64,000 bases of DNA from Haematococcus lacustris (Eukaryota > Chlorophyta > Chlorophyceae > Chlamydomonadales > Haematococcaceae): the NCBI GenBank assembly GCA_030144725.1, contig JASKMD010000003.1:18970427-19034426 (forward strand). The letters run 5' to 3'. The translations under genes were made by a program, and so were the position numbers. How positions within the stretch are numbered: position 1 is the stretch's first letter; each line of letters starts with the position of its first letter. This document shows positions 9,901-64,000 of this stretch, in pieces. The notes beneath the pieces are model-generated. The model had not been told where the DNA came from and searched no databases. It saw nothing but the letters and a program-made list of their open reading frames with translations.

Positions 9901-12900
9901 ACCCACAACCCTACCTTGCGTGCCTCTTCCCCGGCGCGCTGCACCACTGCGGCCAGGCGAGCGTGACGCAGCGCCTCGCTGCGCGCAATCTTCTCCTCCA
10001 TGCGCCTCCGTTCCTCGTCCTTCTCGCTGCTCTCCTGCGGTCGAGGGTGGCGCCACAGGCAGTGAGCGAATATAAGTGTAGAGGTAGTATGAATAGTGGC
10101 AAGAAGGTAGCGTGGTTCGAATGGGTCAGGGTCGGGTTTGCTATGTCGCTAGCGAACATGCCTGGGTGCACAGGGGTGAGCAGGGTAGGGCGGCAACCAG
10201 GTGGGTGAGCATGCGCAGTGCTGCATGTCCAGGCATGAGGCCCTGACCACCTCTTGGTACTTCCTGGACGGCAAGCAGGCCGGGGGGCAGGGCAGGCCGG
10301 CACCCAGGGGGGGGGCAGGGCAGACAGGCCATGTGCAGTGCTGGCCTTCTGACCAGGCTTCACGCGCTGCTTACACTTGATTGGAGTAGCTGAGTGAGAT
10401 TACCTACAGTCAAACAAGTTGTTCCATGTTGAATGAGTTTTGTTTGGCTGTGAAGGTCAGGAAGTTTGAAGGAGTTGTTTGCAGAAGTTTAAAGGAGTAA
10501 GGAGTTGTTTGTTTTAAGGAGTTGTTTGTTTGTCTGTAAACGTCTGCCCTGCCCCCTTGGCCTGTCTGACTCTGGCCAAGTGAAGGTGCAGAGCTGCATG
10601 TCCAGGCATGAAGCCCGGGTCCCTGCAAGACACACTGCCCCTGCCCTGCCCCTGCCCTGCCCCTGCCCTGCCCCTGCCCTGCCCCTGCCCTGCCCCTGCC
10701 CTGCCCCTGCCCTGCCCCTGCCCTGCCCCTGCCCTGCCCCTGCCCTGCCCCTGCCCTGCCCCTGCCCTGCCCCTGCCCTGCCCCTGCCCTGCCCCTGCCC
10801 TGCCCCTGCCCCTGCCCTGCCCCTGCCCTGCCCCTGCCCTGCCCCTGCCCTGCCCCTGCCCTGCCCCTGCCCTGCCCCTGCCCTGCCCCTGCCCTGCCCC
10901 TGCCCTGCCCCTGCCCTGCCCCTGCCCTGCCCCTGCCCTGCCCCTGCCCTGCCCCTGCCCTGCCCCTGCCCTGCCCCTGCCCTGCCCCTGCCCTGCCCCT
11001 GCCCTGCCCCTGCCCTGCCCCTGCCCTGCCCCTGCCCTGCCCCTGCCCTGCCCCTGCCCTGCCCCTGCCCTGCCCCTGCCCTGCCCCTGCCCTGCCCCTG
11101 CCCTGCCCCTGCCCTGCCCCTGCCCTGCCCCTGCCCTGCCCCTGCCCTGCCCCTGCCCTGCCCCTGCCCTGCCCCTGCCCTGCCCCTGCCCTGCCCCTGC
11201 CCTGCCCCTGCCCTGCCCCTGCCCTGCCCCTGCCCTGCCCCTGCCCTGCCCCTGCCCTGCCCCTGCCCTGCCCCTGCCCTGCCCCTGCCCTGCCCCTGCC
11301 CTGCCCCTGCCCTGCCCCTGCCCTGCCCCTGCCCTGCCCTGCCCCTGCCCTGCCCCTGCCCTGCCCCTGCCCTGCCCCTGCCCTGCCCCTGCCCTGCCCC
11401 TGCCCTGCCCCTGCCCTGCCCCTGCCCTGCCCCTGCCCTGCCCCTGCCCTGCCCCTGCCCTGCCCCTGCCCTGCCCCTGCCCTGCCGCCCCTGCCTAGGT
11501 TACAGTCCAGGTTGTCTGTGAAGGCCAGGGTCAGCTGTTTGACGGGTTTGTTTGTTTGTTTGTCCGTAACCATCTGCCCTTCCTGACCTTCACTGACGCC
11601 AGCTTCAGCTGTCTGCCTTCATCCGCCGCTGCCAGCTTAGCCAGGCGTTGGGTGACGCGTGCTGTCCTGCTTTGCTCAGCTCGCGCCTGCCAACACACAC
11701 CGGCAGCAGGCGAGGTGCAAGCATGCTCTTGCACATGTGCATGGGGCATTGCTGTTGTATGCAGGGTGTGGCGCATAGGCCAGGCAGCTGGAGTCAGTGC
11801 AGCACCAGCCACACCAGCCGCACCAGCACTGCCCTTGCAAGCTGAGCTCGAGTGGGGGTGGGGGTGGGGGTGGGGGTGGGGGTGGGGGTGGGGGTGGGGT
11901 GGGGGTGGGGGGGGGGGTGGGGGTGGGGGGGGGCGTGGGGGGGGTGGGGGTGGGCGCACCAGCACCGCACTCGCAGGCCTGACTCACAGCTGTGCCCCCT
12001 CCCTCTCTCTAGCACACAGCCAGTGAGAGGTGAGGGTGGAGGTGGGGGTGGGGGTGGGGCTTGTTGGCAGCTGTGCTGTGGCAAGCCTGACCTGCAGCCG
12101 CGTCATCCCCGAGGACCCTTGTGCTGAGGAGCTGTAGGAGCGCGCGACCCTGGATTTACAGGTAGGTGCTAAGAGCAGCCCCCTTGTCCCTCACTAGGGC
12201 TTCCATCACTAGGGCTTAGCCAGCATGATACCCCAGGCAGGCAGTGTGTTGTCGATGCTGCCCTGGCTACTGCTGCTGTGGCTGGCCACCGCTGGCAAGA
12301 GTGCCTGCACCCCTTGGGCCGTGATGTGGGCCAGGCATGCTTAGGCCCTCAGGCAATGATGCGCAACCAGAGTTCAGGGGCCGCTGGGGATGCCCTCGTC
12401 AGGCAGTTGCGGTTTGTCTCGCATGTGAACTCCGTCACCTGCTTCGCAGCGCTAGCTACGCGAGTCTCGGCTGGTGTGCGTCGGCGCGTGGGCGATAGGA
12501 GCATGTTGCACGGTGACGTCAGCGGTGAGGCCAAAGGCGAGGGCGCGGCGTCCGCACTGACATCCGGGGCTACCGGGGAGGTGCTGGTGCGATTGGTCGG
12601 GATGAACAGCGCCGCTGCTGGGCTGAGCCGCGGGCTGTCAACAGCGCTGGTCGTCACCGCAGCCTGATAGGCGAGCAGGGCCCCTGGTCCTGGGGAAAGG
12701 TCTTCTGTTTTTGTAGTTCCACGCTGTGGCCACAGGGGCAAGGGGTGGGCGCCTTGCCAGCTGAGCAAGTCATGCTGCCTGACTAATTGTGTGATGTAAG
12801 TCTGGGTCTGGGTGTGGCTGATGGGGAGAGGGGTGAGGGTGGAGTGGCCTGAGTGACTGATGTGTGAGTACTTGGTGAGCTTGTTTCACATTGCAGCTGA

Positions 12901-13093: not shown

Positions 13094-13417
13094 GGCGGAG
13101 TTATTCTATCGCCGCTTCGACGTAGCAGCCATTTAGCTTAGTGCGCTGTCTGCCACCATTGCACGCGCGCTCCATCTCAACAGGGCTCCTAGGACATGCT
13201 CGTTTAAATTTCAAATACTCAAGCTAATCATTCCCATCGTTGCAGGGCGTGGACAAGACAGTGGCAATGAAGGTGGCAATCCTGTGCGCGGGACCCGTGC
13301 GCCCGTTGCGTGCAGTAAGGGCGATGGCTGTTGGTGCGTGAGGATCCGGGGTGCTTACATAGTATGCACATTCACTGAGCTACATACTGTACACAAACAT
13401 GACTGGAGACAGGGCAT
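13094..13417. other. Upstream region of the SCAPER-like gene
   Basis: About 320 bp with no convincing gene. It should contain the promoter of the minus-strand SCAPER-like gene if the start at 13093 is right. I see no clear TATA box. Confidence 0.4.
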
Positions 13418-13499
13418 CCCCCTTGTCCCTCACTAGGGCTTCCATTTGAGTCGGACCACCAGGGACCACTAGTGGCCACTAGCGGGAATACTAGGGACT
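13418..13499 (-). mobile_element. 82-bp 3'-end fragment of the Fanzor-element family
   Basis: Begins CCCCCTTGTCCCTCACTAGG and continues through the CCAGGGACCACTAGTGGCC block found at 37.6, 50.2 and 57.2 kb (reverse complement of 37.6 kb). It is truncated after 82 bp and is the shortest copy that still holds the CTAGTGG-rich part. Confidence 0.8.
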
Positions 13500-17341: not shown

Positions 17342-17613
17342 TGCCCCGCCGGTACTCTGCAGCCTATCCTTAGGCAGCCGGTCATTGACCAGCTTGTAGC
17401 GCTGATGGTACTCCTTGCCAATGGGGGGCAGGGCCTCCAGGCCCTCCCAGCGGCACAGCTCCAGGGGGCGCTGCTTGCTCTCCCCAATGCGCTGGAAGTT
17501 AAGGCACGGGTTGGTGTCCCGGTCCAGCCACCTGCCCCATGGGGGGGCCTGGGGTCGCTGTACTGGGCCAGGTGGGGCGCATCAGGTCGCCATCCATCCG
17601 AGTGAGGCGGCAA
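17342..17613 (-). pseudogene. Fanzor C-terminal relic (RuvC-III region)
   Basis: The minus-strand frame through 17545-17342 reads GRWLDRDTNPCLNF, then RIGESKQRPLELCRWEG and KEYHQRYKLVNDRLPKD. This aligns with LDRDCNAALDMLRIGESRW in the better copy at 37.2 kb. DRDxN is the RuvC-III signature of TnpB/Fanzor RNA-guided nucleases, with the second D the predicted catalytic residue. No N-terminal part, zinc ribbon or conserved 3' terminus is found nearby. It is therefore a diverged fragment, not a gene. Confidence 0.75.
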
Positions 17614-33743: not shown

Positions 33744-35313
33744 CTACTTCACATGCTCCTCTAGCTCAGCCTTCTTCTGCTTCACCAGCTCGTCAATGCG
33801 CTTGGTCCGGTCCGTTAACATCTTCTTCACCTGACCAGCCGTCACAGCACCAACCACACACGCTGCCTACTGAGGCCGAGGCCTCGTGCCTTCTCCTCAG
33901 CATAACCACTCCTACTACTCCCTCAACCCACATCCCTCATTCCTCACCTCTCACCCCTCACTCCTCACCCGTCAATGAAAAGCAGGCCGTGTGTTGCAGC
34001 CAGCAGCAGCTCTGTGACAGCCAAACCCGGGATAACGCCCGCCTCACACAGTACCCCACACCCACTGACCATCACCCTCCAGAAGTCCATGCGCCTGAGT
34101 GGTGCGGCAATGTCCGGCAGGCGTGTGACGATGGTGATGGTGATCATGACCGAACCTTGTACTGCTGCTGCTGCTGATGATGATGATGACTTCACCATGT
34201 ACTAATGGTGATGGTGTTTTAGCCAATTGCCGACAGGCGAGCCTGGAGGGGAAGCGTCCTAATTTCATAATATGCTTTGCCATGGTTTGGACCCTGCGAC
34301 CTGTCAGTTATCAGATTCACCCACTACCAACCGAGCCTGCGAGACGGCATGTGCTGATGGTGCTGGTGCTGGTGCTGACTGACCTCCTGCAGCTGCCTGT
34401 GCCGCGCATCCTCCTGTGGCACCCCCTTGTTGATGGCGTCCAGCGCCCGGGCCTGCATGCCGCTGATGACATGCTTCCACTTCACAGCCTCCTGGCTGGC
34501 CAGCTTGCTGGTGTTGCTAACCATGTCTAAGGACGGCCTGCAGGGTTGCAGGCCAGGTGTTCCGCCTTCACCGCCATACGCCACTTCGGTCATATGGCAC
34601 TATCGGCACTATGGCATTATCACATATGGCCTCACCGCCATACGGCACTACCGCCACATGGCATACGGTACACACCTCGCCATGCCTCAACGTCTGCTGA
34701 TTGATTGAGGTTGATAGATTGAGGTCAAAGTAACTGTGATCCAGACACCGAGGTGCAGAGATTGAGGTCAAGAGGTTGAAGTCAGGAGGTGCTGACACGT
34801 AGAGGTGTGTGCAGGCAGCAGTGCCCTATATCAGGTGCATGGTCCACATACCCTATGGTACCATGGGCGGGTAGGGTTCCCTCCTCATCTATTACCGCCA
34901 CAATATGTTTGACCACAAAAGGTACATTTGGGTGAGGCTGCCGGTAGGGCAGCAGTGCAAGGGGTCGTGGGGCGACTGGGTGTGGTAGGCCTGGTGGAGC
35001 TGGCTCAGGGGGCAGTCGCATGGGCAGGGTGCGCACGCGGGGCTAGCAGCTGTAAGGGGGCCATGCAAGCCAATGCCATGCAAGTCAGTGCCATGCAAGT
35101 CAGTGCCATGCAAGTCAGTGCCATGGTGGGAGGGAGGACCTGACCTGGACTGACCTTGGCACTGGCACTTCAATCTCGGGGCCCACTACATTGGCTTGCA
35201 GCTTCAGTGTGGAGGTGCGCAGGGCCTCTGCGATGGCATGGAGGTGCTGGGGCACCAGCACAGCCAGCTGTTAGGTCAGAGCAAAATGTGTCATGCGTGA
35301 CAGGTCACACCCC

Positions 35314-35369
<56 letters not shown>

Positions 35370-38333
35370 ACACAGCCCAGCAGGAGGCGAAAGGCATGCA
35401 ACCATGGAGATGCAATGGTCACATCCATTCCAGAGTGACCGAGGCATTTGCTTTACCAGGCCACTGTTGCTCGCCCGTCAGCCAACCACCTGGGCATGTC
35501 CTTTATTGTTGCATGCACATGTATCAAAGCCTTCGTACAGGAAGATCAAATGTCTACCGACCAGGTGTGAGATCTCTAGGCTCAGCACACACAATGCTGG
35601 CTACAGGGTGCAATACCTTTTCCCTCTGCTGCACGGCTTGTCAAGTGTCTAGGCTGTCAATGCCAGCATGACCCACCGAGACACCCCACCGAGACACCCC
35701 ATGAACCCACCGAGACACTCCTTAGACCCAAACCTTGCTCCGTCTTTTAGCGTGGAGTGTGATTGTGGAGTGTGATTGTGCATACTAGCGTAAGCGGGCT
35801 GCTAGTTCCCGAGTGCAACAAATCGTCAATCAAGCGACAGCTCCCATCCCGTAATGGCTAAGAAGAAGAGGAAGGGCAGCGACAAGCACAAGAAGGGCCC
35901 GCCAAAGAAACCGAAAGGTGCCTGGCCCTAGCCGACTGTGAGCTGTGTCGTGAGCTCCGCGCTGTGTAATAACCCGTCGCTCCTGTTGGTTCCATCGCAG
36001 CGTCTCGTTCCCCTCAAGGCAAGCAACGACAGGAGCGTCGGGATGACTGGAACACGCGCAGACGTCAGGTGCAGCTCCGCCCCCGCCTTGTGTGTCCCAG
36101 CACTGTTTGTGTCCCCGCACTGTTTGTGTCCCCGCGTTGTGTCCTGTCAAAATGGTAATTGTGCTTGTCCGCAGGTCATCAAGGTCCCGGAGGGCACTGT
36201 GCTGCACAGGTGCAAGAAGACAAAGCGCAAGCTACGGGCTCACCTCCAGCTGCGGGCTGAGGCGCACTCCCAGCTCCGCGTCATCGCCTCTTTGTTTGTG
36301 CTCAGAATCTTCCTGACATGCCTGGTGGGCTACCCCACCCCGGGGTACCGCAGCGCCACTGAGCCTCCAGCCGTGCAGCCCCCCCAAGCCCCGGATGCAC
36401 CCCCCCTACCCCCACTCCCCCCGCGTGCCCCTGCCCAGCCTGCCCCAGCCCAGCCTGCCAGCATGGAGTGGGACTGTGACTTGGACTCCGAGTCAGATTG
36501 TGACTCTGAGCCAGAGCCACAGTCTGACTCTGAGTCAGAGTCAGAGTCAGAGCCTGAGCCAGTCAAGCAACCCCCCCCAAGGCGCTGCAGCGCCCGTCTG
36601 GCAGCCCTTGCACCCGCAGCACCCACTAGCCCTCCCTTTGCTTAAGCAGCTCAAGGACTTCAGCCAGTTCTATGCTTATCCAACCAGCTGCAACCAGCAA
36701 GTCTAAAACCAGCTGCAGCGGCGGCTTGTGCGCCCAAGGCAGCGCCGCCACCCCATGCTCATGCCCGTTTTTGAGGACCCCAGCAACCAGGCGCTGCTGG
36801 CCAAGCTGCAGGAGCTGGGCAACATTGATCTGAGGGATGACGCCAACACCATCTGAGCGCACTCCATGCAGGTGGCGGTGGCCATGCAGCAGCACTACTC
36901 CAACCCAGGCAAGTGATGGTGGTGCATAGACTCCTGACCCGACCTGACCTGACCTGACCTGACCAGCGTGACCAGCCAGTGCGGGGCCTGATGTGGTGCC
37001 CTGTACTGGCCCCCCGCAAGCCCCCACAGGCCCCACGCAGCAGCCAGGAAGCCACACAGGCAGCAGCCTTAGAGCCTGGGCCCAGCACTCCCCCGCCAGC
37101 CAAGCGCACCAAGGCTGAGCCGGCAGCTGAGCCCACCAAGGGCAAAGGCAAGGGCAAGTCTGCCAAAGCCAAGCCAGCACCGCAGCCAGGCAGGCGGCTG
37201 GACAGGGACTGCAATGCAGCGCTGGACATGCTGCGCATTGGGGAGAGCAGGTGGCGGCTGCTAGAGCTGTGCTTCTGGCCAGACCAGGGAGCGCTGCCAG
37301 CCAAGGGCAAGGAGTACCCTGGCCTGGGCTACAAGCGGCTGCGAGACAAGCCTCCCAAGGCCCAGCAGCAGCAGCAGCAACAGCCTGCTGAGGCACAGTA
37401 GTGTGTGCCCCCCTTTGTTGAGCTGTCATCAGCTTACATTAGTGCATGCTTTGTCATGCCAACTCTACACAATAGCCCTCGCGGGTCAGGCAGTAATGTA
37501 GGTGGTAGGCGCTCATGTGCCATGTGCACTGGGTATACTCCACACAGCTCAATAACACCACTTGAGTCGGGCGACTATTGCCCACTAGTGGTCCCTAGTA
37601 TTCCCGCTAGTGGCCACTAGTGGTCCCTGGTGGTCCGGCTCAAACGGAAGCCCTAGTGAGGGACAAGGGGGCTGTCAATGCCAGTAGCGGTCACCACCCT
37701 AGTTGGCCGTGTTCTTCCACAGGCCCGGTGCCGCTACAGCTCCAGAAAAAGAGCTTGGGCTCTAACACACTGAGCTGCACACCCACAAACCCTTAACCCA
37801 GCCTGGACACTGTCAAGCACTCACCGCGGGCTGGTAGGGTGACACTGCCAGTTTGTTGATGCTGCGGACTGCCACTGTGGCGCAGCTTTTCAATGGCACG
37901 TGCTTGTGCTCTGCCACTGCCACTGGCAGCACCTCCAGCATCTGTGGGCTGACACGGCCGGATGTGAACTTGCTGAGCTCCTTTTGGAAGTCAGCCAGGG
38001 CTGCATCCATGGTCCTGCAGCAAAGCAACACCACCTCTGGTGAGATGGCACTTCTTTGTTACATAGTGATGATAGTACCTGGCCAAAAGCTTGAGGTCGG
38101 GTGGCTCCACATCTGCTTCCTCGCTATCTTCTTTCTTTCCTTTCTGCTTGCCGGCTGCAACCACCAGGTCAGGGTGGTTTTGCCAAGTTTGCGAAACTCC
38201 AGGCTCCTTGGCTACTGGGACTGACGAACGTGCCTTTCTTCGCATAGTGTGCGGCATGCAACCCCCATACCCGTGGGGTCGCGTCATTGACGACCGCGCG
38301 CAGTGAAGTGGCGGCGAGCAACCTGCCAATCAT
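33744..38333 (-). CDS. Organellar ribosome recycling factor, complete
   Basis: Minus exons: 38333-38234, 38154-38079, 38014-37825, 35267-35155, 34537-34384, 33830-33744. All phases agree, giving 239 aa. The product frees ribosomes from mRNA after termination, together with EF-G. The leader MIGRLLAATSLRAVV...HAAHYAKK looks like a mitochondrial presequence. The core MDAALADFQKELSKFTSGRV...PYQP matches the RRF N-terminal helix ('LRTGRASP...TPYD'). HAIAEALRTSTLKL...GPEIEVPVPRPS covers domain II, and KKMLTDRTKRIDELVKQKKA is the C-terminal helix. Intron 1 uses a GC donor (38233-38232). Intron 3 (37824-35268, about 2.56 kb) contains a Fanzor-bearing mobile element. Mitochondrial rather than plastid location is an inference from the leader. 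Confidence 0.93.
35317..35368. repeat. (CAG)n trinucleotide tract
   Basis: About 17 CAG copies in intron 3 of the RRF gene, outside the Fanzor element. Confidence 0.95.
35652..35666. repeat. Target site duplication, left (GGCTGTCAATGCCAG)
   Basis: Fifteen bases repeated exactly at 37670-37684, bracketing the Fanzor-bearing element. The first two G could belong to the element end, which would make the duplication 13 bp. Confidence 0.85.
35854..37401 (+). pseudogene. Fanzor (TnpB-like RNA-guided nuclease), internally deleted
   Basis: Exons 35854-35917, 36001-36068 and 36175-36645 agree in phase. They start MAKKKRKGSDKHKKGPPKKP, a KKKRK nuclear-localisation-type sequence, and continue VIKVPEGTVLHRCKKTKRKL. 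An acidic Ser/Glu repeat (DSESDCDSEPE) follows, and the frame stops at 36645. A decayed stretch, 36646-36920, reads KQLKDFSQFYAY...AKLQELGNIDLRDDANTI with two stops. The C-terminal exon (about 36970-37401) has VRGLMWCPVLAP, another basic KGKGKGK segment and RRLDRDCNAALDMLRIGESR, the RuvC-III motif. The RuvC-I aspartate and RuvC-II glutamate regions are missing. Fanzor proteins cut DNA guided by an omega RNA. This copy cannot do so, but it shows gene layout and introns. Confidence 0.82.
37402..37671 (+). ncRNA. Candidate Fanzor omega-RNA scaffold / conserved 3' region
   Basis: The 270 bp after the Fanzor stop are kept with few changes at 50148-50420 and 57212-57480 (both reverse) and 60880-61145. 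The terminal 82 nt form a hairpin closed by TTGAGTCGG (37562-37570) with CCGGCTCAA (37635-37643). Inside are CCACTAGTGG-type self-complementary blocks. In studied Fanzor systems the guide RNA lies at the 3' end of the element, with the guide beyond the terminus. By analogy, this could be the scaffold. Expression is unproven, and a purely structural transposon end is the alternative. Confidence 0.5.
37670..37684. repeat. Target site duplication, right (GGCTGTCAATGCCAG)
   Basis: Exact copy of 35652-35666, directly after the element terminus GGGACAAGGG. Confidence 0.85.
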
Positions 38334-38744: not shown

Positions 38745-43757
<5,013 letters not shown>

Positions 43758-50705: not shown

Positions 50706-50889
50706 GAAAAAAAAATGATACAATCTCAAAAGTAACTACACACTGTACCACAGTGTTTGTAAACTGTTCCTGGCTCAGCCGACACCTGTACAAAGCAAAA
50801 GACGACAAGTGTACGTTGCCATCGCATGTGGCCATCGCGTCGCACTAGTTTGAGCTTGTACCTGCTCCAAGAAAACTCTTGACGAAGAA

Positions 50890-55851: not shown

Positions 55852-57211
55852 ATTGCTTCCCTCCAGCGCCCAGCCCGTGATGGCCAGCTGGCCATGCTGG
55901 CCTTTGCGTTGCTACTTGTTGCCCGCTGGGCTTATGAATGGATCCTGAGGTGGTTGTGTACCACCTGGTCGGGGGTTCAAATCCAGGTGGAGAGGGTCCC
56001 TACAACGCACGTCATCACAACAAAGGTGGTCGACAAGGTATTTGTGCCAGGATGTCGCAGAGCAGCCTGTTGGGTACCAAGACTGCTCTCTTTTTGATCT
56101 CAAAGCGTGCTCCTCAATTGGGGGTGAAGCTGGTAAGCACTGCATGGGCCATTATGCGTGTCATGGTCAGCATGGCGTGGAGTATGGAGCTGCAGGCAGC
56201 TAGACACAAGATGTGACAGTTGTCGGAGGCAGAATGTGCTGCATGATCAGAATGATCAGGCGCAATGCGGCATGTCATGCGGTTAAGGCGGTTGCAGCGC
56301 AGGTCAGCTGTGTGTGCGTACCACTGGGTGGTTCCCAGTGAGCTATGGAAGCAGCGCTGCATGCATGGCGTTGCAGGATAGCTGGTTTGGCGTAGCAGCG
56401 CATGTGCAGCTGGCATGCACTCAGCAACCTAAACCAGGGCAGCATGGCATTTCATCCCATCGCCCCCTGGTGCTTGGGTCATTTCGTTGCATGAAGGTCT
56501 TGCAGCCATTGTCAGCAATTGGCATCAGGTCGTCAGGTGTTGTGATGGCAGTGCAGAAGCAGCCCAGCTGGCTGCAGAACAGAAGGGCAGGGCGGCAGAG
56601 GGCAAGGGAGTATGACTTGGAGCACCAGGCATGAAACCTTACACTGTGGTGCCCAGCTCTTGAGGCATTTAGTGAAGCTTGAAGCCTTGAAGCTCTGTTT
56701 CTGAAGCTGTGCTGATATTTGATGGCAGGTGGCCTAGCTCTTGTGCTGATCAACATGTTTGTCTTCACATCAGCTAACAGCTCCTGTATGTTCAGCCGTC
56801 ATGGTTTTGCAACTGCGGAGAAGGGTTGCCTCGACGAAAGTGAACATAAGGTAAAGTGGGGTGTTAAACTGGCAGCGTGAAACAGTCATCTCACCCTTAG
56901 GCTGCCTGCTTGTGCTTGTCCGGTATTTTCCACGCTGACATGCAGGTTTTGTCTATACCGCTGGCTATGTCATTTTGGCAGGATGTTGATATTTTGTAGA
57001 TGTGTGTTGCTGTAGCTCTATACATATGTACATGTAAGCAAGCCTGTATTCACCGTGTCTGTTGCAAGGCAACTGTCAGCTGTTCTGGCCCTGCTACGAC
57101 ATCGCACGATTACATTTCCCCTAGCATGGCCAGCACTTCCCAGCATAGCGTTCCCGCCAACATTCCTCAGCTGATGTGTAAGCCACCTATCTATCTGATG
57201 TCTCCTCTCAG
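55852..57211. other. 3' flank of the CCCH gene
   Basis: No gene is supported over about 1.36 kb. A hairpin-like stretch, ACCTGG...GGTTCAAATCC...CCAGGT, at 55969-55994 contains a pol III B-box-like motif but no tRNA cloverleaf. TGTAA signals occur near 57031 and 57177, rather far from the stop. Confidence 0.4.
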
Positions 57212-58011
57212 CCCCCTTGTCCCTCACTAGGGCCTCCATTTGAGCCTGACCAGTAGTGGCCACTAGGGACCACTAGCGGGAGTACTAGGGACCACTAGTG
57301 GCCTGACTCAAATGGTGTGGATGGGCTGTGTAAAGTATGCCCGATGTACATGGGCATGGTGCATGAGTGCCTACCACCTACACTATTGCCTGACCCCGGA
57401 GGGCTTATGTGTAGAGTTGGCATGTCCTGCATGCACTAATGTAAGCTGATGACAACTCAAAAGGGGGGGTACACACTACTGTGCCTCAGCAGGCTGCTGC
57501 TGCTGGGCCTTGGGTGGCATGTCTCGCAGCCGCTTGTAGGGGCCGCTGCTTGGTGTGGCCACCAGCACAGCTCCAGTGGGCGCCATGTGGCCTCCCCTGC
57601 CTGTTGGAGGTTGAGGGCTGCGTTGCAGTCCCTGACGAACCCATTTGCCAAGGTCCCCAGGGGTGGCCTGGTGTAGCCAGGGGCACCACATGAGGCTCCG
57701 CACTGGCGCCTCAAACCGCTTGCTCCAGGCTGACTACAACAAGTGCTTCTGCACCTAACTGCTGGGGGCCTCCAGCCTTCAGGCCTGGTGGGCTCGCTGC
57801 GGTCCAGCTCTTCCTCACAGGGCTGGGGGCTGTTTATAGCTGAGCTGACCCGGCTGATGCAGAACTCATCCACCGTCGCCACATTGCCTAGCAGCCTGTC
57901 TGCTGGCTTGCCACTGTTTGGCCTCTCCACCACCTTGCGGCAGGCCTGCTGCACGGCTTTGGCCCCCCACCCACCCCGCGTGCCAATGCCAGCATTGCCA
58001 ACGAATACCAC
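57212..58011 (-). pseudogene. Fanzor relic retaining RuvC-II and RuvC-III regions
   Basis: In the minus sense, from about 58005: LVVFVGNAGIGTRGGWGAK, then NVATVDEFCISRVSSA. This is the VDEF-TS-x-V motif with the RuvC-II glutamate at about 57866. Next come VRSLMWCPWL in another frame and FVRDCNAALNLQQAGEATWR, the RuvC-III motif. The frame shifts at least twice between these blocks, and the expected zinc-ribbon cysteines (CxxC after TS) are not intact. The 3' region and terminus (57480-57212) match the other copies. It lies on the same strand as FAM161, 1 kb past its stop. Confidence 0.78.
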
Positions 58012-58982: not shown

Positions 58983-61900
58983 TTACTTGCCGTGGTTGAC
59001 GGTCGGCATGCTGCTGCTGGAAGGCTTGCCGTAGGCCTGCTTGGTCTTCAGCGCCATGTACACCTTGGCGCGCTCCTCAGCCTCTGTGCGGGCCCTCAGC
59101 AGTGCCTTGCGCTCTCTGAAGCAGCAGCCACCGCACACCGGCCCACATGGCAGCAGCAGCAGCAGCTGCTGGAAAGCAGCAGCACCCAGCCCCTCCCTCG
59201 TGTAAGACTGATGACACAACAGCAACCTCTCCCTACATGTCATGGCAGGAGCTGGTCATGCCACCCAGCCTTCCCACTGTCGCACTCTTATACAACTGTG
59301 GTCTACAGGCTTTGCGCCCTGACCTATCACCCTAGCTGCAACCTAGCTGCACCCTAGCTGCACCCAGCCAGCTCCAGCGGCCTCACTTGTCCTCAGGGTC
59401 ATCAAACTGGCCTTGGCGGCGTGCCTGGTGCGTCTTGGCCCGGCGCAGCATGTTGGCGCGCGTGTCTGACACCTGCGCACAGCAGAAGGAAGTGGCTGCC
59501 TGCAGCAACCTGCACAAACTTGCAGCAATGGGCTGGTGAGACATGCAGCAAGTCTGCACCAACTGGCAGTGGCCTGCAACAAGGTGCAGCAAGATTCAGC
59601 AGCCTGCACCGACCTGCGGTGGCCTGTGACAGTGGCAGTACACTGCGCGGGGCTTCAAGACAAGGCCCTGTCCACCACCCTAGGTACTCACCTTGTGATC
59701 CGGCTGGGTGAAGGCAGGCGGGGGCTGCGGCTGCACCCTGCCTCGCAACGATTTGAAGGGCCAGCGGGACTCTGGCAGCAGCTCCTCATCTGCTTGCATT
59801 TCCAGCAGGATACGCTGACGCCTCTGCAAGGACTGAAAGCGCCAGGGCCACAACGAGCCATGCATGACATGCATGCAAGCTAGGACACCATCATGGTGGA
59901 GATGGCAGGTCCAGTAACTCCAGCTGCTGCTAGCTGAAGAGGGGTGACCATTCAGGCATGGCATGTGCAGCACACAGAGGACCCATTGAACAGGAAGTTG
60001 GCACGATGGAGCTACTGATGCCGGCGGTGATCCTAGCCCTGGCGCGCAAGGTGGGTGTTGCAGGCCTGCCGCAAGGTGGTGGTGAAGAGGCGCAGGGGTT
60101 GTGACCAGCTGAGGGGCAGGGTGTGTGCTGGTGGATGAACTCTGCACCAGCTGGGGCAGCTCAGCTGTGGATGGTGACCAGGACTGGGCTGATGAGGGAA
60201 ACTCCATAGCTGCACTTGCCGTTGCACCACACAAGCACACATGTGCAGTACACACCAGGGAAGTATACGGCAAGCAGCACAGAAGCACGCTAGCCATGCT
60301 ATGGAGGCAGCCTACGAGCAGTGGCCAGCGACAGGCTACTCTTGTGCCCGGCCGGCCAGCCACAGGGTGGGCAGATGCAAGGTACTCGGGACAGGGTGCC
60401 ACTTGCCTTGGCCTCCCTGTCTTTGAGCTCAGCGGGGGTGCGGGCGGTGTGTGTGCCAAACTCCTGGGGCACTGTCATGTGGCGGCGATTGAGGGCCCGC
60501 ATGGTCGCCATGCGCTGCTCCCATTTGCTGCAGTGGCAGTGGTGGCGGCAAAGGGCAGGCAGAGGCTAGGCAGGGGTGCGCACCTCAGGCGCATCTGCCG
60601 CCACCAGCCTGCTCACATGCCGAGCAACAGCAAGTGCCACATGCGAGCTGCAATAAGCAGGCTGCTTTGCCACTATAATAGGGGGCAGTTGCACACTTGA
60701 TACATTGTGCATGGCACATGGCATATAGCACATGGTGGCGCAGGTGGGAGGAGGAGGGAAAGGAACCCTAACCCTTTTCACACAACCGTGTATTTTTCAC
60801 GGGAAACCCAAGCGGCTGCGAGACAAGCCTCCCAAGGCCCAGGAGCAGCAGCAGCAGCAGCAGCAGCCTGCTGAGGCACAGTAGTGTGTGCCCCCCTTTG
60901 TTGAGCTGTCATCAGCTTACAATTAGTGCATGCTTTGTCATGCCAACTCTACACATCGCCCTCGTGGTCAGGCAATAGTGTAGGTGGTAGGCGGGCTCAT
61001 GTGCCATGTGCACTGGGTTTACTCCACACAGCCCAATAACACTGTTTGAGTCGGATCTAGTTAGTGGCTGCTAGTGGCTGCTAGTGGCACCTAGTAGGTA
61101 CTTCTGATCCGGCTCAAATAGAGGCCCTAGTGAGGGACAAGAGGGCTGCTTTGCCACTATGGACTTGAGCAGGCCATCTTCCTGTAAGCCTTGCCATGTC
61201 TGTAGGCCTTGACTGTGCCATGGGGGAGGTGAATCCCCTGGTGGGCTGTACACTGGATTGCCGGCGCCAGGCAGGTTCAGGGGTTCACCTGTGCATCATG
61301 TTAAAGTCAGGCACAGCCCCGGGCGGCTTGGTGTCGTACTTCTGGTTCCAGATGGGATCTATGCTGCGCAGCCGCTCCTGGTACTGCCTACGTGTGGCAG
61401 CAGCACAGTGACACCAGGCAGGCAGCCAGGATCAGCTCACCCCAGGTCAGCAGGCTGCTACCAGTGCCTGGATCGTCGTCCACCTGGCACTGTCACAAAC
61501 AAAGGGGTTAGGGTACAGACATACAGTCACAGACAGTCACAACAGACTGCTGCATCACCAGGATGGGCTCAGAGGAGCCACAGCTGCCAGGGGTGGTGAT
61601 GGTGGAGGTTAGGCAAGAGAGCAGCCATATCAGCAGGGTGTCAGATATGTCCCCAGAAGAACAAGAAGATGTCCTTGACGTGCCCAGAAGAAGAAGACTA
61701 CTCTGGCAGAGCCAGCGTGCATTAAGGAAGGAACAGGTACAAAGGAGCGCCCTCATCCCCCATCCCTCACCCCTCCCCTGACTCTGTAGCTGCTTTTAGC
61801 AGTGCTGTGTGAGCTGACATGCCCAGCCTGTTGGTCATGTTCGTGTCCAGGGAGGACCACCCTGTCCAGGCTGACCTGCCAACCTGCTGACGTCATAGCA

Positions 61901-62251: not shown

Positions 62252-64000
62252 TTGATGATGGCGACAATGATGACGACGATGATGATGATGACCATGGTCA
62301 TCATCACACCCACGTGCAGGATGGCACGCAACTGTAAGTACATGGCAGAGACGGAGTGGAAGAGCATAGTGTGGTATAGTGTGGTGTTGTGGCAGGGCAA
62401 GCAACATGCGTAGCAAGAGGTTAGTGTAGGCATGCTTCCCTTACTGGGCCTGCTGATGGGACACGCACCTGCATGAACTTGAACTTCTCAATCTTGACGG
62501 CCGTGGGCACAGGCTTTGCGTGAAAGTGTTGCTGCAATCCAGCACCAGCATCCAGGCAGCCAGTGATGCAGGCCCAGCAGCCAAGGTAAACAGTTACTAT
62601 CAATTTGAGTAAGGTTGGTGATGGGGTGAGTGGGGCGGAGGAGCTGGCCCTTTTGCTCTCACCTGGAAGCGGTTGGGATCCTTAGCCCTTGCTGCAATGG
62701 CTTCCTGCATCATCTTGCGCTGCTCATCACGCTCTTGGAACGAGAAGGGTTGTTCAACCATGCTGAACAAGCACATGTAAGCAAAGGCAAGGGCATGGCT
62801 GCCTAAACCAAACCAGCACCATAGCCAGGCAGGTGGATAGACGCATGCGGGGCAGTGCAGCAAGCTGATGTGCCCAGGCCGGGAGCTGCAGAGGTCAGGC
62901 TGCAGGGGGTGAGGCGATGGCGCACCTAGCCAGCTCAGCCAACCTGGTGTCCCTGTTGATCTGACGCCGCACCTCAGCCTCCAGCAGCATCTGCTGGTAC
63001 CGCTGGTCCAGCACAGCGCTGCACAGATATTGGTCAAGCACAGCATTGTGCAGTGTCTTGCCCCCGCCAAACCATCATGCCTTGGCCCCGTTTGACCACA
63101 GCATGCCAGTTACATAGAAGCAGGCGGAGCAAGAGATCATTCCTTCCCCGCAGTGCAGCAGACAATGGAGGAGGGGCTTTGTGTCCACATATCTGCATGA
63201 TGTGCTCCCCACTGGCAAGCTAGCGAAATGCATGAAGCATGGCACGCATGAAGCAGGACAATGGGCTGAACCAATGCCAACGGAACAACAGGCCATGGCC
63301 AGCCTCACTTACGCAGCTGGCTGCTACTACCACTCAGAGTGTGCGCAGAGGTGCAGGAGCGCTGCAGGTGCAAGTGCAGGTGCCCCATATGGATGTGGGG
63401 CGGCCCGGCTGCACCCCTGCCAGCTGCCTACTCACTCTGGCACTGGCCGGGCCTTATGGCGCCAGTGCCTGGCTGCTTGCTCCTCTTGCTGCTTGATGGC
63501 TAGGTCCTGCTCCAGCTTGACCTGCAAAAGGCGCTGCCATGTATGCTTGTATGTGGCTGTGAAGCTGGCTGCTGTGCCAGCACCCGAAATATGGAGATGT
63601 CAGCGTGCAGGTGGCTGCCATAGGAGGTGTTTGTTTGCGAAGTTGGTGTAAAGGTGTTTCATAGTGACTAAGGGCGTGGCTAGTGACACCAAGGGGCACA
63701 CTGGTAACTGTAGTCAGCAATGGAGGGGTGGCTGGCCAATGCAGGGTGAGGCAGCGCAGACCTGACCAGTGCAGGGCAGGCTGAAGCAAAGCAAGTCGGG
63801 TACTAGCAGGTCTGGCCTGGTCAGGTCGAGTCTGGTCAGGCCAGGTCACGTCAGGTCAGCAAGTCATTGGAAATCAGGGGCAGCAGGGCAGTTCCGAGCA
63901 GCGCTGAGAAGATGAGTGCAGGGTTCACACCGTCCTAATGGGCTTAGGCCGGGCAGCTGCCCGCTCCTCAAAGGCCATGGGCTCAGGCACAGTGGGCGTG
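58983..64000 (-). CDS. FAM161A: FAM161 homologue, 5' end beyond the window
   Basis: Minus exons: 64000-63931 (partial), 63521-63436, 63018-62926, 62762-62663, 62531-62469, 62047-61935, 61387-61289, 60527-60407, 59823-59692, 59472-59387, 59115-58983; phases agree, about 365 aa in the window. FAM161 proteins bind microtubules in cilia, basal bodies and centrioles. The family order is clear: TVPEPMAFEER; HKARPVP; PFSFQERDEQRK; FHAKPVP; AVPDF; HMTVPQEF; then RRQRILLEMQADEELLPESRW-PF, which parallels the human KREKILADIEADEEN...TRWPY block. The stop TAA directly follows VNHGK. The intron after 60407 uses a GC donor. The intron between 61289 and 60527 holds a Fanzor 3' element copy. Confidence 0.92.
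60662..60676. repeat. Target site duplication, left (CTGCTTTGCCACTAT)
   Basis: Repeated exactly at 61146-61160. With the preceding GG on both sides the match is 17 bp. Confidence 0.85.
60677..61145 (+). mobile_element. Short Fanzor-element copy in FAM161 intron
   Basis: A 469-bp copy flanked by a 15-17 bp duplication. The first 135 bp (AATAGGGGGCAGTTGCACAC onward) are not seen in other copies here. From about 60812 it holds the last Fanzor codons KRLRDKPPKAQ, a CAG run, the stop, and the conserved 3' region to GGGACAAGAGGG. A 13-bp stem, TTTGAGTCGGATC (61045) with GATCCGGCTCAAA (61106), closes the terminal hairpin. It is antisense to FAM161. Confidence 0.88.
61146..61160. repeat. Target site duplication, right (CTGCTTTGCCACTAT)
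   Basis: Exact copy of 60662-60676 directly after the element terminus. Confidence 0.85.
62203..62250. repeat. (ATG)n trinucleotide tract
   Basis: About 16 ATG copies, followed by a degenerate ATGACG stretch to 62300, in a FAM161 intron. Confidence 0.95.

What the first reader, a model, noticed from the sequence alone, without database searches (positions are those of the whole stretch)
35652..37684. Fanzor element with 13-15 bp target duplication inside a host intron
GGCTGTCAATGCCAG lies on both sides of a 2-kb element that carries Fanzor exons. This fixes both ends of a Fanzor-carrying mobile unit. The duplication length does not fit hAT (8), Mariner (TA) or IS607-like (none) insertion. 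Variable duplication lengths together with variable 5' ends look more like target-primed reverse transcription or an undescribed integration mode.
Basis: partly seen in the sequence, partly recalled or inferred. Interest (0 to 1): 0.85.

Follow-up and report, generated by a model that had tools for sequence, protein, structure and literature searches.

The report
Fanzor-like element with target duplications
A green alga carries more than a thousand copies of a mobile DNA unit that holds pieces of a Fanzor-like (CRISPR-relative) gene; this copy, and some others, duplicated 12 to 17 bases of the landing site, as related units in another alga are already known to do, and they tend to land beside a short motif that matches their own tail.

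Summary
The 15-bp repeat is real (35652-35666, 37670-37684) and flanks a 2-kb insertion in an intron of a ribosome-recycling-factor gene. The host looks like Haematococcus lacustris. The family is huge: 1,706 exact copies of its last 25 nt, none of the reversed control. Duplications of 12-17 bp were found at 8 of 26 distinct sites read (115); empty paralogous sites holding one copy prove two of them, not the given one, whose 3 paralogues are all occupied. New here: at 7 of 8 such sites the target has CTG just 5' of the duplicated stretch, matching the element's own 3' end ...GGGGGCTG (background 0.042).

mRNA-templated reverse transcription is disfavoured: intron 2 is kept in copies that span it, and no spliced junction of that intron was found genome-wide at up to 3 mismatches. 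The behaviour is already described for Fanzor1 elements CRe-1/2/3 of Chlamydomonas (Bao & Jurka 2013, PMC3627910), filed there as non-autonomous Helitron2 with one-ended transposition. Helitron2 terminal inverted repeats were not found here, and the one autonomous Helitron end read does not match. New variant of a known kind.

The parts
35652..35666 (+). 5' copy of the 15-bp target-site duplication; its first 5 bases GGCTG match the element's own 3' end
35667..35751 (+). 85 bp of non-family filler between the 5' duplication and the shared 5' terminus, with a slipped repeat CACCGAGACACCC; its first 7 bases are shared with the paralogous loci L032/L033
35752..35853 (+). shared 5' terminus of the family (GTGGAGTGTG...CGTG); first 13 bp tandemly duplicated in this copy
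   Evidence: also in L037, L038, L039, L045, L050
35854..36905 (+). 5' exons of the Fanzor-like gene with GT..AG introns still present at 35918-36000 and 36069-36174; followed by an internal deletion relative to L037
   Evidence: coordinates read
36958..37401 (+). C-terminal Fanzor-like reading frame (RuvC-III-like ...LDRDCNAALDM...)
   Evidence: 964 related proteins
37402..37674 (+). conserved 3' non-coding end of the family, ending ...GAGGGACAAGGGGGCTG at 37674; the likely guide-RNA region by analogy with other Fanzors (inferred)
37670..37684 (+). 3' copy of the 15-bp target-site duplication (5 bp overlap the element end)
37822..38016 (-). host exon, ribosome recycling factor, RRF model positions 1-54
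35157..35267 (-). next host exon, RRF model positions 53-84 (weak alone, E 0.021); the element lies in the intron between the two
60660..61160 (+). second copy in the window (C): 17-bp duplication 60660-60676 and 61144-61160, filler 60677-60808, family part 60809-61148
   Evidence: empty paralogues L051, L052
50145..50706 (-). copy B, family sequence stops at 50706, no duplication found
57209..57539 (-). copy D, 3' part, no duplication found
13415..13498 (-). copy E, 84-nt 3' end, no duplication found
12176..12204 (-). copy F, 29-nt 3' end, no duplication found

Best explanation
A non-autonomous Fanzor-like element copied as DNA from a fixed 3' end and mobilised in trans, in the manner proposed for the Chlamydomonas elements CRe-1/2/3 (one-ended, rolling-circle-like). 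Proposed steps: (1) an HUH-type enzyme opens the element's bottom strand at its 3' end (bottom strand 5'-CAGCCCCC...) and joins it to the same motif in the target, just 3' of CTG on the top strand; (2) strand copying runs towards the 5' end and often stops early or runs past it into other DNA, giving truncated copies or copies with filler; (3) the free 5' end is sealed 9-13 bp further on, duplicating that stretch. Shown: nearly fixed 3' end, variable 5' ends, fillers, duplications, CTG target match, retained intron. Inferred: the enzyme, the polarity, the sealing step.
For: Fixed 3' end: in a search not chosen by the tail, 38 of 39 other long matches to copy B stop within 10 bp of the same 3' base, one stops 16 bp short; 1,706 exact 25-nt tails against 0 of the reversed control. 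(The 38 ends read closely were chosen for reaching the tail: 61 of 68 rows did, 7 rows were dropped.) Duplications at 8 of 26 sites (L028 merged with L046). Empty sites with one duplication copy: C site, two paralogues; L039 site, one. Match of the target to the element end GGGGGCTG: A 5, C 5, L037 1, L039 3, L048 3, L049 7, L046 3, L043 4; 7 of 8 at 3 or more, background 0.042, binomial 1.9e-9 (the L039 value is read from its empty site, the occupied copy differs by two changes). Intron 2 found intact in 4 of 6 copies tested (A, L037, L038, L039; three sites), the other two (L045, L050) having lost stretches there; spliced junction 0 in held DNA and 0 in the genome at up to 3 mismatches. Non-family filler after the 5' duplication in A, C, L037, L039, as in CRe loci 1 and 7. 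Helitrons exist in the genome: 18 Helitron_like_N pieces, 40 PIF1 pieces, some perhaps of cellular helicases.
Against: No Helitron2-type asymmetric terminal inverted repeat: best inverted match 6 bp, reached by 45% of shuffles. The one autonomous Helitron 3' end read (L054) looks like a canonical hairpin + CTAG end and does not match the Fanzor tail (best 13 bp, E 1). No exact tail lies within 100 kb of the Helitron_like_N pieces on C1 and C2. 18 of 26 sites show no duplication. The genome-wide count of unspliced junctions did not complete. Everything short of the partner enzyme also fits reverse transcription of an unspliced RNA.
Confidence: 0.5

Rival explanations
1. Target-primed reverse transcription in trans by a LINE: the RNA 3' end ...GGGGGCUG anneals to a nicked target carrying CTG, cDNA synthesis stops early (5' truncation) or switches template (filler), and the offset second nick leaves the duplication.
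For: Variable duplications, 5' truncation, nearly fixed 3' end, target match to the 3' end; filler that may be copied from the target flank in L049 (10-bp match, 14 of 662 controls reach it), weaker in L039 (56 of 658) and L048 (83 of 672).
Against: Intron 2 kept in the copies where it can be seen and no spliced junction of it genome-wide; no poly(A) or simple-repeat tail in the ends printed; no adjoining 5' inversion in 38 copies; at least five copies with internal deletions that keep both ends. No LINE end was read, so a shared tail is untested.
Confidence: 0.25
2. Break-repair capture: displaced strands or excised DNA of the element are captured at staggered breaks by microhomology-mediated joining, with Fanzor's own RNA-guided cut possibly making some of the breaks.
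For: Microhomology at the 3' junction, possibly templated filler in L049, and a deletion in L028 that starts at the element's 3' end and ends at a CTG of the flank.
Against: 38 of 39 long matches to copy B stop at the same 3' terminus, which random fragment capture would not give. Filler in A, C and L037 shows no local template.
Confidence: 0.15
3. Chance direct repeats around a segmentally duplicated fragment, not target duplications.
For: 18 of 26 sites showed no duplication; parts of contig C175 are multiplied.
Against: Empty sites with one copy at two sites; chance controls.
Confidence: 0.02

Closest known systems
CRe-1, CRe-2, CRe-3 Fanzor1 elements of Chlamydomonas reinhardtii (Bao & Jurka 2013, PMC3627910; section 8 read whole, other sections in passages)
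   Same: Multi-exon Fanzor gene, frequent 5' truncation and internal deletion, intact 3' end, variable duplications (about 7-19 bp there), a short target motif just 5' of the duplication, occasional extra sequence between the 5' duplication and the element.
   Different: Target motif is CTG here, TTTT-like there; there the ends resemble autonomous Helitrons and carry asymmetric terminal inverted repeats, here no such repeat was found and the one Helitron end read does not match. Their sequences are in supplements I could not open, so no sequence comparison was made.
Non-LTR retrotransposons (LINE/SINE, target-primed reverse transcription; features recalled)
   Same: Variable duplications, 5' truncation, fixed 3' end, target match at the 3' end.
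   Different: Intron retained, no tail seen, no reverse transcriptase seen in the element, no 5' inversions seen.
IS200/IS605 and IS91 HUH elements of bacteria (recalled; IS91 one-ended transposition also)
   Same: A TnpB-like gene in the first, one-ended transposition and a short fixed target motif in the second.
   Different: Those are not known for target duplications; no HUH transposase was seen in this element.

Membership tests
Fanzor/TnpB gene family | RuvC/TNB nuclease domain | tested here: inconclusive
   PF07282 above its cut-off in 2 of 7 relatives scanned (P0194, P0207), below it in 4, absent in 1; not in the 7 pieces of this element and L037. Motif order GIDPG..VDEHRTS..RDCNAALN (its meaning recalled). 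No PDB sequence hit for P0217 or the A1 profile beyond one at E 1.3. Fold prediction failed, pLDDT 30.
Fanzor/TnpB gene family | intact C4 zinc finger | tested here: not met
   Consensus reads RTSRVSSAVNG, with serines where the finger cysteines would be expected (read by eye; the motif is that of the PMC3627910 abstract). Hence the name Fanzor-like.
CRe-type Fanzor1 element | 5' truncation with intact 3' end and variable duplications | tested here: met
Helitron2 | asymmetric terminal inverted repeats | tested here: not met
   best inverted match 6 bp, 45% of shuffles reach it; tested on a 5' terminus judged by eye from 6 copies
Helitron2 | hairpins at both ends | tested here: inconclusive
   both 60-nt ends fold (DNA parameters -6.1 and -8.9 kcal/mol) but no shuffle control was made
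Helitron2 | ends shared with an autonomous Helitron of the genome | tested here: inconclusive
   one 3' end of the strong Helitron group read, no match; the weaker group on C1, C83, C100, C443 not read
Helitron2 | HUH replication protein acting on it | not testable with these tools
   needs experiment
LINE/SINE (target-primed reverse transcription) | variable target duplications with 5' truncation | tested here: met
LINE/SINE (target-primed reverse transcription) | copies lack introns of the template gene | tested here: not met
   intron 2 only:
LINE/SINE (target-primed reverse transcription) | 3' tail shared with a LINE of the genome | not tested

The most novel reading that the evidence does not exclude
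These Fanzor-like elements are not Helitrons at all but use an undescribed one-ended integration route in which the element's 3' terminus (CTG) is matched to the target, perhaps with the Fanzor guide RNA, whose 3' part would read into the flank, taking part in choosing or opening the target.
Probability: 0.15. Interest if true: 0.8.

Novelty: new variant of a known kind. Interest (0 to 1): 0.45.

Why it matters
How eukaryotic Fanzor genes move is unsettled, and many are not linked to a transposase (recalled; cf. PMC10432273 discussion, passages). A second alga with more than 1,700 tails, proven duplications, empty sites and a target motif equal to the element's own end gives a large data set on which the 2013 one-ended proposal can be tested against reverse transcription.

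Tried and rejected
Rejected as a duplication: the 11-bp repeat of L024/L026, which lies inside family sequence. Rejected: cut-and-paste elements, since duplication length varies and the 5' ends vary. Searched for adjoining 5' inversions: none; the only reversed matches (5 rows) are the neighbours C and D seeing each other. Local templating of fillers: L049 14 of 662 controls, L039 56 of 658, L048 83 of 672; none in A, C, L037. Fold prediction failed; PDB searches gave nothing useful. Rfam gave only sub-gathering microRNA models on an acidic repeat stretch. A search for an empty B site was crowded out by family copies; L048 had flank repeats but no spanning match among the rows listed. Intron 1 was matched by my pattern in A only, 1 of 6 copies, so only intron 2 is used as evidence. 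In the window three further rows match the element's inside and do not reach its 3' end (17392-17536, 57544-57634, 62781-62842).

The unspliced-junction count genome-wide did not complete, so the zero has no genome-wide denominator; in held DNA the donor is seen within 5 mismatches in A, L037, L039, L045 and the intron in L038.

A site counts as duplicated if any paralogue shows it: L031 (L037 site), L045 (L043 site) and L028 (L046 site) show none themselves.

Full report
Observation. The exact 15-bp repeat GGCTGTCAATGCCAG is at 35652-35666 and 37670-37684 and is the only exact pair in the window. A search of the window with the 2-kb unit gives eight other rows: five copies that end at the base equivalent to 37674 and begin at different places (562, 340, 331, 84 and 29 nt long), and three inner fragments that do not reach the end.

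Genome. The window is C175:18970427-19034426 of a 308-Mb genome. Protein names of relatives point to Haematococcus lacustris: 119 of the 120 listed rows (the other is the window's own protein) and 120 of 120; the searches found 964 and 959 proteins at E 0.001 or better. The last 25 nt occur exactly 852 + 854 times, the reversed control 0.

Sample. I read 38 element ends (6 in the window, 32 in fetched loci), chosen for reaching the tail (61 of 68 rows, with loci held twice counted once). They cluster into 27 insertion sites by 3' flank, 26 after merging L028 with L046_1198, two paralogous copies of one locus. Eight loci (L023-L030) had only about 1.5 kb upstream, so some 5' ends could not be seen. 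An unselected check of the 3' end: of 39 other long matches to copy B, 38 stop within 10 bp of the same base and one 16 bp short.

Duplications. Exact repeats of 12 bp or more that tie the 3' junction to the 5' boundary: A 15, C 17, L037/L038 14, L039 12, L048 13, L049 16; the A repeat is 13 bp in its paralogues L032/L033. A mismatch-tolerant scan near the 5' boundary adds L046 (15, one mismatch) and L043/L044 (17, one mismatch); it misses L048, whose boundary was set too short. So 8 of 26 sites; 18 showed none. Chance: 8 of 1338 mismatched flank pairs reach 12 exact bases (4 of them at 30, probably paralogues), against 9 of 38 ends; in the tolerant scan 7 of 444 control pairs reach the score of 11 that 11 of 38 ends reach.

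Empty sites. The joined A flanks match three loci only, all occupied. The joined C flanks match two paralogous loci end to end, each with one copy of the 17-bp sequence (two substitutions); the joined L039 flanks match one locus across the junction, again with one copy. These prove insertion with duplication at two sites.

Target motif. The element ends ...GGGGGCTG. L037, whose target matches only the last G, still carries GGGGGCTG, so the motif belongs to the element. At the other seven sites the target repeats 3-7 bases of it just 5' of the duplicated stretch (A 5, C 5, L039 3 from its empty site, L048 3, L049 7, L046 3, L043 4). Background for 3 or more is 0.042; binomial 1.9e-9. Without the shared bases the duplications are 9-13 bp. 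Longer shared bases also make a repeat easier to find, a mild bias.

5' side. Six copies (A, L037, L038, L039, L045, L050; five sites) share a terminus GTGGAGTGTG.... In A, L037 and L039 other DNA (85, about 285, about 140 bp) lies between the duplication and that terminus; C has 132 bp of filler before family sequence starts. A, L039, L043, L045 and L050 have internal deletions that keep both end regions.

RNA or DNA. Intron 2 (36069-36174 here) is intact in 4 of 6 copies tested, A, L037, L038 and L039; L045 and L050 have lost stretches there. Intron 1 was matched in 1 of 6 by my strict pattern. No spliced junction in held DNA, none of intron 2 in the genome at up to 3 mismatches. The genome-wide unspliced count did not complete. 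No adjoining 5' inversion in 38 copies and no Helitron2-type terminal inverted repeat.

Partner. Helitron_like_N matches 18 places, PIF1 40. Downstream of one RepHel gene (L054) the end looks like a canonical Helitron: hairpin, then CTAG followed by T (judged by eye); it shares nothing with the Fanzor tail beyond a 13-bp match. Other Helitrons and all LINEs remain unread.

Gene identity. Relatives show PF07282 above cut-off in 2 of 7 scanned and a RuvC-like motif order, but the zinc-finger cysteines are replaced, PDB sequence searches failed and the fold prediction was unusable. I call it Fanzor-like.

Host gene. RRF exons flank the unit on the opposite strand (PF01765, 1.7e-12 on the joined exons).

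Comparison. Bao & Jurka 2013 (PMC3627910: section 8 whole; passages) describe the same behaviour for CRe-1/2/3. A search for Haematococcus with Fanzor listed one work (PMC12633428, listing only, not opened); one for Haematococcus, transposable elements, Helitron and genome assembly found none; one for Fanzor with Helitron listed four. I saw no report of this family in those listings. PMC10711439, PMC10432273 and PMC4067079 were read in passages.

Noticed in passing
L028 and L046_1198: Paralogous copies of one insertion: in L028 the 3' duplication and about 146 bp of flank are gone, the deletion starting at the element's 3' end and ending at a CTG in the flank.
   Followed up: partly
window 35652-37684 with L032, L033: Three paralogous loci on contig C175 carry the same insertion in different internally deleted forms, so part of the contig is at least triplicated.
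   Followed up: partly
L037 and L050: The two insertions share DNA 5' of the family terminus, as if donor flank had been carried along.
   Followed up: partly
L045:2548-7194 (-): An unbroken Ty1/copia-type polyprotein frame of 1549 aa.
   Followed up: no
window 41819-43423 (-): Reading frame with an Rft-1 domain match, 30.6 bits.
   Followed up: no
window 36473-36547: Acidic serine-rich repeat stretch that rings several microRNA models below gathering score; probably low complexity.
   Followed up: no
L037:6090-6700: An intron holds a long array of a GACCT-type repeat that is short in A and L038.
   Followed up: no
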